Below are positions 30,453 through 32,768 of a stretch of 54,112 nucleotides of DNA, piece after piece (position 1 is the stretch's first letter; each line of letters begins with the position of its first letter). The DNA comes from Candidatus Ornithospirochaeta stercorigallinarum (GTDB taxonomy: Bacteria; Spirochaetota; Spirochaetia; Sphaerochaetales; Sphaerochaetaceae), in NCBI GenBank assembly GCA_018711525.1, contig DVIF01000041.1:1-54112 (forward strand), in the 5' to 3' direction. The translations under genes were made by a program, and so were the position numbers. Below the pieces are notes generated by a model. The model made no database searches. It was given only the letters and a program-made list of their open reading frames with translations, and was not told the DNA's origin.

Positions 30453-31364
30453 TTATATGAATTCACCGTAAATCACTGCATTACAATGATTACATACGCC
30501 ATTTGTCACATATCTGTCTATCTTTGTTCCACAGTTCGGACAGATGGTATCATCATGTGAAATGCTGTTGCCCCGATAGATGTATGGAATATTGCATTGC
30601 CTTGCAACTTCATACATCCTTGTAAGATATGCCTCACTCGTCTCTTTCCTGTCATCCATCATATAAGATGGGAAGAATCTTGTCAGATGCCAGACCTTGA
30701 CTCCTGCATCAGAAAGAAACCTGCCTATCTCCCGGATCATGCCTTCATTGTGGATTCCTTCGATTATCATGGTGGTGACTTCAAGGTGTGAGCCATAGTT
30801 TGAAATCTTCTCAATCCCCTTTCTTACAGGGATGGCGCTCGCCTTCACAATCCCATTATAGAATCTTTCATCTCCTTTGAGGTCGATGTTGTAGGCATCG
30901 ATAAACGGAAGGATCCTCTTTATTGACTCATCAGAGAAACTTCCATTTGAGACCATGATGTTCATCAGGCCTTTCCCTTTTGCCTTCGCTGCAACAGAGA
31001 GCATGTAATCCTGCCAGACAATGGGCTCTGAATATGTGTAGCTTATTGATGGAGCGCCCTCATTGAGTGCTATATCGACTATCGTATCCTCGTCGATGCA
31101 GACATGCTCCTTATGATGGCGTGATATCTCATAGTTCTGGCAGAATGAGCAGAAGAAGTTGCAACCCTCCTCTGCAATCGAAAGGGTCTTCGTTCCCGGA
31201 TGGAAATGATAGAGAGGTTTCTTCTCTACAGGATCCAAGGCAGCGGAACAGAGCTCAGAGTAATGGGGGCTCAGAAGCTTTCCGTCCTTCACTGCCCTTG
31301 AGCGGCAGATGCCATATCCCCCTTCTGCTATATCGCATCTACGGTAGCAGAAATCACAAGTCAC
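30453..31364 (-). CDS. amrS: AmmeMemoRadiSam system radical SAM enzyme
   Basis: A 303-residue radical-SAM protein related to pyruvate formate-lyase activases. An N-terminal CDFCYRRC is followed by the cluster motif CNFFCSFCQNY (Cx3Cx2C) near residue 68. A C-terminal zinc ribbon (CPNCGTKID ... CNHC) closes the protein. It is the third gene of the amrB-amrA-amrS operon and overlaps the amrA stop by four bases. The conserved three-gene association in bacteria and archaea suggests that the proteins act together. The reaction is not settled from sequence. Confidence 0.9.
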   Translation of the reverse strand: MTCDFCYRRCDIAEGGYGICRSRAVKDGKLLSPHYSELCSAALDPVEKKPLYHFHPGTKTLSIAEEGCNFFCSFCQNYEISRHHKEHVCIDEDTIVDIALNEGAPSISYTYSEPIVWQDYMLSVAAKAKGKGLMNIMVSNGSFSDESIKRILPFIDAYNIDLKGDERFYNGIVKASAIPVRKGIEKISNYGSHLEVTTMIIEGIHNEGMIREIGRFLSDAGVKVWHLTRFFPSYMMDDRKETSEAYLTRMYEVARQCNIPYIYRGNSISHDDTICPNCGTKIDRYVTNGVCNHCNAVIYGEFI

Positions 31365-31879
31365 GCTATCACCTCAGCCTGGAAGATCTCAAAAGATGCA
31401 TCTTCATCGAGATAGGCATCCTTCCCAAGTCCCGCTTTGAGGGAAAGCTGCTCAAAGAATGTCTTCTCATCCCACCCTGTCTCTTCTGCGACGGAGGGGA
31501 GGAATACGGCTCTCCAACCTCTGACATTCATCATAAGCCCGTCCTTTCCAAGGGTGAATTCATCAAGGCTTTTTATCTTCCTCATTGGAGTAAGAAGTGA
31601 TATCTCAATGCTGATATCCTTCAATTCGCTCTCTTCAACCGGAGGGAACCTGTAGTCGCAGGTGGCAGCATCCCTGACAAGCAGTCTTATCATCTCATAA
31701 AGCGGACATATCCCCTGCATGTACCCTATGCAACCTCTGAGCGAACCTTTCTTCCTGAGGGTGACGAAAACACCCATGCGTAAATCAGATTCAGGAACAT
31801 CGATTTTCTCATCATTAAATAGACCATGAAGGACATTGTAAGCAAAATCCAATATCCTCTTTTTCTCAGCTTTGTTCAT
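31361..31879 (-). CDS. amrA: AmmeMemoRadiSam system protein A (AMMECR1 domain)
   Basis: 172 residues with the invariant AMMECR1 hexapeptide LRGCIG (in GSLRGCIGYM, near 53). The middle part has DISIEISLLTPM, and WDEKTFFEQLSLKAGL lies near the C-terminus, where family members have a conserved helix. The function of AMMECR1 proteins is unproven. The gene sits between the MEMO and radical-SAM genes with four-base overlaps on both sides, so the three proteins are made together. Confidence 0.93.
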   Translation of the reverse strand: MNKAEKKRILDFAYNVLHGLFNDEKIDVPESDLRMGVFVTLRKKGSLRGCIGYMQGICPLYEMIRLLVRDAATCDYRFPPVEESELKDISIEISLLTPMRKIKSLDEFTLGKDGLMMNVRGWRAVFLPSVAEETGWDEKTFFEQLSLKAGLGKDAYLDEDASFEIFQAEVIA

Positions 31880-32670
31880 TTCCTCCTCCAGAACACATCG
31901 AAATAGGAGACGAAATCATCCGCATCCTGAGCATATACATCATATGAAGTGTAATGCTTGCCGAGAAAGCCTTCGTACCCCGACTCTGCCATCAGATAGG
32001 AAAGCAACATCGCAGGCGCACTTCCGCAGATGGTCATGTCCCTATGTATCTTGAAGACATCCTCCACCCTTCCCTCTGCCAGTGCGGAGGCTACCATGAA
32101 ATCCTGCTTCTCCACTTTTTCCAGAGCATCAGAGCCATATGGTGCATATCCGAAGCGTTTCCCGTAGTGAGTGAAGTCACTTGAAGCGATCAAGGCTGTT
32201 TCATCATCGATCACCTCTGCAAGATACATCCCCATCTTTTCAAGCTCCTCGAAAGATGAAAAAGAAGTAAGAAGAGCATAAGAGACGACCAAGCCCTTCT
32301 TCTTTACAAACGGCAGGAACATCTCGATGCCATGCTCCTTTGCAATTGCATTGTTGAAAACCTCTCCCTCCAAAGGAAAAGGCTCAGTCTTTATATTCCC
32401 ATATGGAGTCTCTGAAAGCGAGAAGTCGGAAACATAAAGCCTGTTGCTTTCCAAAGGGTAATAATGGGAAGGGCTTATGATGACGATCCTCTTCACAGCA
32501 TCACTCAGACCTTTGAAGAAATCACTGATCAGAGGAGCGCTGTAAAAGAGCCCTGAGTGAGGAAGGACTGACGCCCTATAGTCGCCACTGCCATCCACAG
32601 ACACCATTTCATCAAGTTCTTCCAACGCTCCGGGGTACCAGGAACCTTTGAATACGGCTTTTCTGAGCAT
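31876..32670 (-). CDS. amrB: AmmeMemoRadiSam system protein B (MEMO family)
   Basis: 264 residues of the MEMO family, related in fold to class III extradiol dioxygenases (LigB). Candidate metal-ligand histidines are in LPHSGLFYSAP, SPSHYYP and SDFTHYGKRFGYAPYG, and CGSAPAML matches the conserved C-terminal turn. A GGGGAGG site precedes the ATG. It is the first gene of the triad and starts 99 bases after the fructosamine operon, behind that operon's terminator. Confidence 0.93.
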   Translation of the reverse strand: MLRKAVFKGSWYPGALEELDEMVSVDGSGDYRASVLPHSGLFYSAPLISDFFKGLSDAVKRIVIISPSHYYPLESNRLYVSDFSLSETPYGNIKTEPFPLEGEVFNNAIAKEHGIEMFLPFVKKKGLVVSYALLTSFSSFEELEKMGMYLAEVIDDETALIASSDFTHYGKRFGYAPYGSDALEKVEKQDFMVASALAEGRVEDVFKIHRDMTICGSAPAMLLSYLMAESGYEGFLGKHYTSYDVYAQDADDFVSYFDVFWRRK

Positions 32671-32705
32671 GATATGCCTCCCCTGTCATTATCGCACAAC
32701 TTCAA

Positions 32706-32741
32706 GAAAAAAAGCTGCCTCAAATGTCACTTCGAAGCAGC
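32706..32741 (-). terminator. Terminator of the fructosamine operon
   Basis: Minus strand stem GCTGCTTC / GAGGCAGC (one G-T pair), 12-base loop, then seven T. It lies between frlD and amrB and separates the two operons. Confidence 0.85.
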
Positions 32742-32768
32742 CCATCTATCTGATGAAAAAAAGGAGGA

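What the first reader, a model, noticed from the sequence alone, without database searches (positions are those of the whole stretch)
30453..32670. Complete AmmeMemoRadiSam operon (MEMO, AMMECR1, radical SAM) with four-base overlaps
The three genes are fused into one translationally coupled unit, and all key residues look intact: MEMO histidines, LRGCIG in AMMECR1, Cx3Cx2C in the radical-SAM protein. The human homologues MEMO1 and AMMECR1 are disease-linked but biochemically unclear. This compact unit is a good subject for finding the shared reaction. It lies directly downstream of the fructosamine operon, though behind a terminator.
Basis: partly seen in the sequence, partly recalled or inferred. 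Interest (0 to 1): 0.55.

Follow-up and report, generated by a model that had tools for sequence, protein, structure and literature searches.

The report
AmmeMemoRadiSam operon and its exported cousin
The three genes are an ordinary copy of a known but unexplained bacterial gene trio related to human MEMO1 and AMMECR1, and comparing it with relatives turned up a form of the trio that appears to be sent outside the cell's inner compartment as a complete set, which is strong evidence that the three proteins work together.

Summary
In detail: on the minus strand lie MEMO (31876-32670), AMMECR1 (31361-31879) and a radical-SAM protein, rS (30453-31364), with 4-base overlaps and intact key residues. 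The genes overlap; they are not fused. The trio is NCBI's named AmmeMemoRadiSam system, although this rS scores below NCBI's cut-off. Adjacency to the fructosamine genes is shared only with the nearest relative, so co-regulation is not supported. Joint action is supported: 110 of 218 phylum genomes have all three and 81 have none. Single members exist, but mostly MEMO. Within the genus the trio is all-or-none (15 with, 9 without). Unexpectedly, many relatives carry a second form: a MEMO-AMMECR1 fusion with a lipoprotein or Sec-type signal, beside an rS with a twin-arginine (Tat) signal. It occurs across 27 phylum-level labels, with the checked catalytic residues kept. TatC is present in 36 of 37 genomes with Tat-type rS, but in 4 of 13 genomes whose rS has a hydrophobic signal without twin arginine. 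A radical-SAM enzyme outside the cytoplasm would be very unusual. The shared reaction remains unknown. The window's copy is the ordinary unexported form.

The parts
31876..32670 (-). MEMO homologue, AmmeMemoRadiSam protein B, 264 aa
   Evidence: ORF; TIGR04336 106.3 bits over cut-off 26; Pfam Memo 4.6e-30; aligns to human MEMO1 structures
31361..31879 (-). AMMECR1 homologue, AmmeMemoRadiSam protein A, 172 aa, LRGCIG intact
   Evidence: ORF; TIGR04335 142.7 bits over cut-off 99; Pfam AMMECR1 2.6e-43; matches 1vaj, 1zq7, 1wsc
30453..31364 (-). Radical-SAM protein rS, 303 aa, GTG start, no N-terminal signal; divergent branch of the family
   Evidence: ORF; TIGR04337 193.9 bits, under cut-off 220; Radical_SAM Pfam 6.2e-11; no solved close relative
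31876..31879 (-). 4-base overlap ATGA between MEMO stop and AMMECR1 start
   Evidence: sequence
31361..31364 (-). 4-base overlap GTGA between AMMECR1 stop and rS start
   Evidence: sequence
31882..31889 (-). Shine-Dalgarno-like GGAGGAGG before AMMECR1
   Evidence: read
31369..31375 (-). Shine-Dalgarno-like GAGGTGA before rS
   Evidence: read
32677..32683 (-). Shine-Dalgarno-like GGGGAGG before MEMO
   Evidence: read
32712..32743 (-). Terminator-like hairpin between the fructoselysine-kinase-like gene and MEMO
   Evidence: region count not above shuffles

Best explanation
The operon encodes one anaerobic enzyme system. MEMO (an Fe(II)-type site of two His and one Cys) and AMMECR1 (with the invariant LRGCIG cysteine) form one two-part protein. 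The radical-SAM protein makes a 5'-deoxyadenosyl radical and works with that two-part protein, in the same compartment, on one shared reaction. The window's copy is the unexported form. My preferred mode, inferred and held at about 0.4, is that rS acts as an activase: it modifies MEMO-AMMECR1, or a substrate bound to it, much as PflA-type enzymes act on a partner protein. Shown: gene content, intact residues, co-occurrence, natural MEMO-AMMECR1 fusions, and matching export signals in relatives. Inferred: a physical complex, the direction of the reaction, and metal use here.
For: All three co-occur in 110 of 218 phylum genomes and all are missing in 81; about 30 of the 110 have no two of them within 4 kb, so linkage alone does not explain it. 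Copy numbers rise together: 2:2:2 in 16 of the 110. In the genus 15 of 24 have the trio and 9 have neither AMMECR1 nor rS, with at least 5 changes of state on an rpoB tree of 22 of the 24. Flanking genes change while the trio stays together. Natural MEMO-AMMECR1 fusions in 20 of 20 chosen loci, with an rS found in the fetched stretch of 17. Where rS carries an export signal, a MEMO within 5 kb is a fusion with its own signal in 42 of 46 loci, against 3 of 31 controls. The closest characterised relatives of rS are glycyl-radical activases.
Against: MEMO occurs alone in 11 of 218 genomes, and a shortened MEMO paralogue occurs in genus members without AMMECR1 or rS. In eight Treponema-like loci the AMMECR1 gene carries a long N-terminal part instead of a recognisable MEMO, LigB in the three scanned, so MEMO itself is not indispensable. 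Eukaryotes have MEMO1 and AMMECR1; that they lack this rS is recalled, not tested. No glycyl-radical partner motif was looked for. The fusion model gives confident domains but not their orientation (pTM 0.69), so a shared active site was not shown. All-or-none loss within the genus could be single deletions of one 2.2-kb locus, and several of those genomes are incomplete.
Confidence: 0.7

Rival explanations
1. Small-molecule pathway: rS and MEMO-AMMECR1 carry out successive steps on one low-molecular substrate (for instance a modified nucleobase or isoprenoid, as I recall being proposed by Burroughs et al. 2019), without rS touching the proteins.
For: MEMO belongs to the fold of extradiol dioxygenases, and the AF2 fusion model also matches those enzymes; LigB stands in the fused position in Treponema-like loci; exported loci often add a membrane spermidine-synthase-like protein.
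Against: No neighbour of a defined pathway is conserved beside the window's trio across the genus. In the exported form, stoichiometric use of SAM outside the cytoplasm would be costly (inference).
Confidence: 0.35
2. Metal handling: MEMO is an iron or copper buffer and the neighbours are only loosely related to it.
For: Human MEMO1 binds Fe and Cu through H49, H81 and C244 (PMC11081632, passages read); the same residues are kept here; MEMO occurs alone in some genomes.
Against: Does not explain co-occurrence with AMMECR1 and rS, the fusions, or the matching export signals.
Confidence: 0.12
3. The trio is a by-part of the fructosamine (Amadori product) locus upstream and shares its regulation.
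For: The genes lie 98 bases apart on the same strand; the upstream kinase and SIS protein resemble fructoselysine enzymes, though below NCBI's cut-offs.
Against: In the genus only G234, the nearest relative, shows the same upstream block; a terminator-like hairpin lies between; other genomes carry the trio elsewhere.
Confidence: 0.03

Closest known systems
AmmeMemoRadiSam system (NCBIfam TIGR04335, TIGR04336, TIGR04337)
   Same: All three members, contiguous and in one direction; A and B over the curated cut-offs; rS best matched by TIGR04337
   Different: The rS is under the cut-off (193.9 against 220), on a divergent branch shared with its genus relatives and a few other genomes
Human MEMO1 (PDB 3bcz, 7kq8, 7l5c) and the extradiol-dioxygenase fold
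   Same: Same family and the metal ligands H49, H81, C244 kept
   Different: Distant (phmmer E 3.7e-13); no metal binding or activity tested here; the human set lacks rS (recalled)
Archaeal AMMECR1 proteins 1vaj (PH0010), 1zq7, 1wsc
   Same: Same family and LRGCIG motif
   Different: Entries are titled hypothetical or function unknown, so they give no reaction to compare
Pyruvate formate-lyase activase and relatives
   Same: Closest characterised radical-SAM relatives of the rS
   Different: Extra N- and C-terminal cysteine sets; no glycyl-radical enzyme in the operon

Membership tests
AmmeMemoRadiSam three-gene system | MEMO homologue over TIGR04336 cut-off | tested here: met
   106.3 bits, cut-off 26
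AmmeMemoRadiSam three-gene system | AMMECR1 homologue over TIGR04335 cut-off | tested here: met
   142.7 bits, cut-off 99
AmmeMemoRadiSam three-gene system | Radical-SAM protein over the TIGR04337 naming cut-off | tested here: not met
   193.9 bits, cut-off 220; still the best family by 150 bits. I therefore call the locus a member by gene content and order, with an rS from a divergent branch, not a TIGR04337 equivalog
AmmeMemoRadiSam three-gene system | The three genes together in one genome | tested here: met
   contiguous in the window; the MEMO model has a single match in the assembly
Radical SAM superfamily | CxxxCxxC cluster motif | tested here: met
   C68, C72, C75
MEMO1-type metal site | Two His and one Cys ligands | tested here: met
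   H38, H69, C215 align with H49, H81, C244
MEMO1-type metal site | Binds iron or copper | not testable with these tools
   needs purified protein
Exported AmmeMemoRadiSam form described here | Export signals on rS and on MEMO-AMMECR1 | tested here: not met
   The window rS starts at its first cysteine set with no extension, MEMO has no signal, and no TatC was found in the assembly, 82.9% complete. The window's trio is not a member of the exported form
Glycyl-radical activase (PflA type) | Glycyl-radical partner protein | not tested
   none among the three genes of the operon; the genome was not scanned for one

The most novel reading that the evidence does not exclude
Beside the ordinary trio there is an old, widespread exported AmmeMemoRadiSam system: a Sec- or lipoprotein-exported MEMO-AMMECR1 fusion plus a radical-SAM enzyme carried out through Tat (or, in lineages without Tat, by a plain hydrophobic signal or anchor), often with a membrane spermidine-synthase-like protein, and in four cases with a CxxCH haem-c-like insert. 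It would be a radical-SAM system working outside the cytoplasm, and it shows by parallel re-targeting that MEMO, AMMECR1 and rS act together.
Probability: 0.85. Interest if true: 0.8.

Novelty: new member of a known kind. Interest (0 to 1): 0.58.

Why it matters
MEMO1 and AMMECR1 are conserved human proteins without a known reaction, and the bacterial trio sets both beside an enzyme of known chemistry. The copy in the window is ordinary, but the comparison gives a sharp reason to treat the three as one machine, since a form exists in which all parts carry export signals. Radical-SAM enzymes are understood (recalled) to work in the cytoplasm because they need SAM and a strong reductant; a set that works outside would force the question of how both are supplied, and offers candidate answers (a haem-c-like insert, a membrane protein with a spermidine-synthase domain) that can be tested.

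Tried and rejected
Fructosamine link: rejected as a conserved feature. Composite active site in a natural fusion: one AlphaFold2 run on a 502-aa fusion gave confident domains (pLDDT 92.7) but pTM 0.69 and a low-confidence linker; no coordinates were available, so no distance between the two conserved sites was measured. Foldseek only re-found MEMO1, AMMECR1 and dioxygenases. A plasmid search found nothing. Literature: the searches listed no paper on the trio's reaction or on an exported radical-SAM enzyme. Only search listings were seen, except for passages of PMC8688507, PMC7159879, PMC11081632 and PMC10924467. Burroughs et al. 2019 (J Biol Chem), which I recall as the main study of Memo contexts, is not held, so the exported form may already be described there.

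Weak points of the export claim. The signal classes come from a simple script, corrected by hand: L269 and L301 were taken out of the Tat class (L269 was moved to the hydrophobic class and L301 dropped), L256 was put in and L075 was treated as a control. Six loci with unclear N-termini (L267, L276, L293, L304, L307, L316) were left out of the tree. NCBI's short Tat model recognised 19 of 61 N-termini against 0 of 70 controls, so most rest on the motif alone, and several Spirochaetota motifs are RK rather than RR. The 70 controls were chosen from the 84 by leaving out repeat extracts and unclear N-termini. Control loci include three repeat extracts of the same places (L137-L139). Exceptions: three control rS beside a signal-bearing fusion (L267 near a contig end, L288, L291); G012 and G025 have exported-looking fusions, but the rS that I opened in each has no signal; five signal-less rS lie inside the exported clade. 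The 80 loci are those nearest to a Tat-type query, so their shares are not frequencies.

Full report
What is there. On its minus strand lie three packed ORFs: MEMO (31876-32670), AMMECR1 (31361-31879) and a radical-SAM protein (rS, 30453-31364). The junctions read ATGA and GTGA, and each gene has its own Shine-Dalgarno-like stretch. NCBIfam names the trio AmmeMemoRadiSam: MEMO 106.3 bits (cut-off 26), AMMECR1 142.7 (cut-off 99), rS 193.9 (cut-off 220, so under it). All checked residues are present, including the three ligands that hold iron or copper in human MEMO1 (H49, H81, C244; PMC11081632, passages read). No close relative of the rS has a solved structure.

Surroundings. Upstream, on the same strand, are a fructoselysine-kinase-like gene, sugar ABC transporter genes and a SIS-domain gene, all below the NCBI cut-offs for the named enzymes. 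A terminator-like hairpin lies in the 98-base gap, but such sites are no commoner here than in shuffles. I compared neighbours in 19 fetched loci of relatives. The fructosamine block recurs only beside the trio of G234. Elsewhere the trio keeps together while its flanks change; one other layout recurs in about seven genomes. So the trio is the unit, and the fructosamine neighbourhood is local. The 4-base MEMO/AMMECR1 overlap is possible in five other genus loci, and packing is tight in most that could be read.

Do the three go together? In 218 genomes of the phylum (tallied) 110 have all three, 81 none, 11 MEMO only, 5 MEMO+AMMECR1, 4 AMMECR1+rS, 4 MEMO+rS, 2 rS only and 1 AMMECR1 only. I counted AMMECR1 only down to the end of the printed match list (seven genomes with weaker matches dropped) and rS only at about E 1e-47 or better (42 genomes with only weak radical-SAM matches dropped). 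In 11 of the 110 the MEMO match is weak; eight of these loci were opened and in all the AMMECR1 gene has a long N-terminal part, which Pfam calls LigB in the three scanned. AMMECR1 and rS are the tightest pair (114 of 120 each). Thirty-five of the 110 show no pair within 4 kb, five of them weak-MEMO genomes. Copy numbers are 2:2:2 in 16. In the window's genus, 15 of 24 genomes have the trio (two of them split between contigs) and 9 have neither AMMECR1 nor rS. On an rpoB tree of 22 of those 24 the state changes at least five times, although some absences are in incomplete assemblies and one branch is very long. Among 14 control genomes MEMO matched in five, AMMECR1 in five and rS over its cut-off in four; Thermus had MEMO without AMMECR1, and Haloferax AMMECR1 without MEMO.

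Where it led. Many phylum genomes hold a second set in which MEMO and AMMECR1 are one protein. I fetched 20 such loci; all 20 held a fusion, and 17 an rS in the same stretch. The fusions begin with signal-peptide or lipoprotein-like segments. The rS beside them begin with a twin-arginine-like motif and a hydrophobic stretch. None of the other rS then in hand did so, including second copies in the same genomes. The TatC gene is present in 15 of the 17 genomes and in 103 of the whole 218; it was not found in the window's genome.

Beyond the phylum. A scan of genome contigs with these rS gave 80 loci, the nearest of at least 588. After classification 43 carry a Tat-type N-terminus and 13 a hydrophobic one without twin arginine; 24 have none or are unclear. 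The 56 fall under 27 phylum-level labels, two of them archaeal. NCBI's Tat-signal model hits 19 of 61 N-termini of the Tat class and 0 of 70 controls. Where a MEMO lies within 5 kb, it is a fusion with a signal in 42 of 46 loci with a signal-bearing rS, against 3 of 31 controls (Fisher p 1.6e-13, not corrected for kinship). In an rS tree of 146 rows all 73 signal-bearing rows lie on one side of one branch together with five others (the support of that branch is 79). The most telling natural experiment: TatC is found in 36 of 37 genomes whose rS has the Tat motif, but in only 4 of 13 whose rS has a hydrophobic signal without it (50 of the 56 loci; p 2.6e-6). Lineages without Tat seem to have kept a signal and dropped the motif.

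The exported form looks active. C244 is kept in 46 of 46 MEMO parts and H49 in all 42 that reach it; the LRGCIG cysteine in 48 of 48; CxxxCxxC in 73 of 73 rS. Four rS (L255, L261, L271, L281) have a CxxCH motif between the signal and the enzyme, as for attaching haem c, which happens outside the cytoplasm (the haem reading is inference). A polytopic protein with a spermidine-synthase domain (PF01564; NCBI 'fused MFS/spermidine synthase') lies in 15 of 18 exported phylum loci and 23 of 41 Tat-type loci of the scan, against 0 of 19 loci of the genus and its nearest relatives and 1 of 21 other phylum loci; 4 of 11 loci with an exported-looking fusion but no clear Tat motif have it, and 7 of the 28 remaining loci, five of those with a hydrophobic rS N-terminus. 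It could help to supply SAM or take part in the reaction; that is a guess.

How it most likely works. The parallel export of all parts, the fusions and the co-occurrence make joint action the best reading (0.7 for the statement as given). Which partner acts on which is open. I lean to rS acting on the MEMO-AMMECR1 protein, since the nearest characterised enzymes are activases and an activase needs little SAM, which suits an exported form. The rival is a small-molecule pathway.

Novelty. The window's trio is a new member of a known kind, with an rS from a divergent branch. By itself I would score it about 0.3. The higher score is for what the comparison shows. I found no description of an exported radical-SAM enzyme or exported trio in the searches listed under Tried and rejected, but the library lacks most subscription papers, including the one most likely to discuss it.

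Noticed in passing
L143, L146, L147, L149, L319-L326 (genus relatives; not found in the window's assembly): A second, shorter MEMO-like protein (about 240 aa) that keeps the H49, H81 and C244 positions but has lost D189 and H192 (read in L146, L147, L149) lies directly behind an NFACT/RqcH-like gene in 12 of 12 loci, and before a further conserved gene (no Pfam match in the one scanned) in 10 of 12. It may tie a MEMO relative to ribosome quality control.
   Followed up: partly
L200, L202, L206 (Treponema-like loci): AMMECR1 fused to a LigB-type domain instead of MEMO, with an rS on the same fetched stretch in two of these three.
   Followed up: partly
L255, L261, L271, L281: Tat-type radical-SAM proteins with a CxxCH (haem-c-like) insert between signal and enzyme.
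   Followed up: partly
40 loci listed, e.g. L289, L312, L225: Polytopic spermidine-synthase-domain protein beside the exported MEMO-AMMECR1 and rS genes.
   Followed up: partly
L209, L210, L211: Divergent rS similar in score to the window's, in genomes that also have a canonical rS, with no MEMO or AMMECR1 recognised in the fetched stretch.
   Followed up: no
family f5 genomes G076, G101, G106, G134, G161, G180, G188: Small Borrelia-like genomes with a weak MEMO match and neither AMMECR1 nor rS.
   Followed up: no
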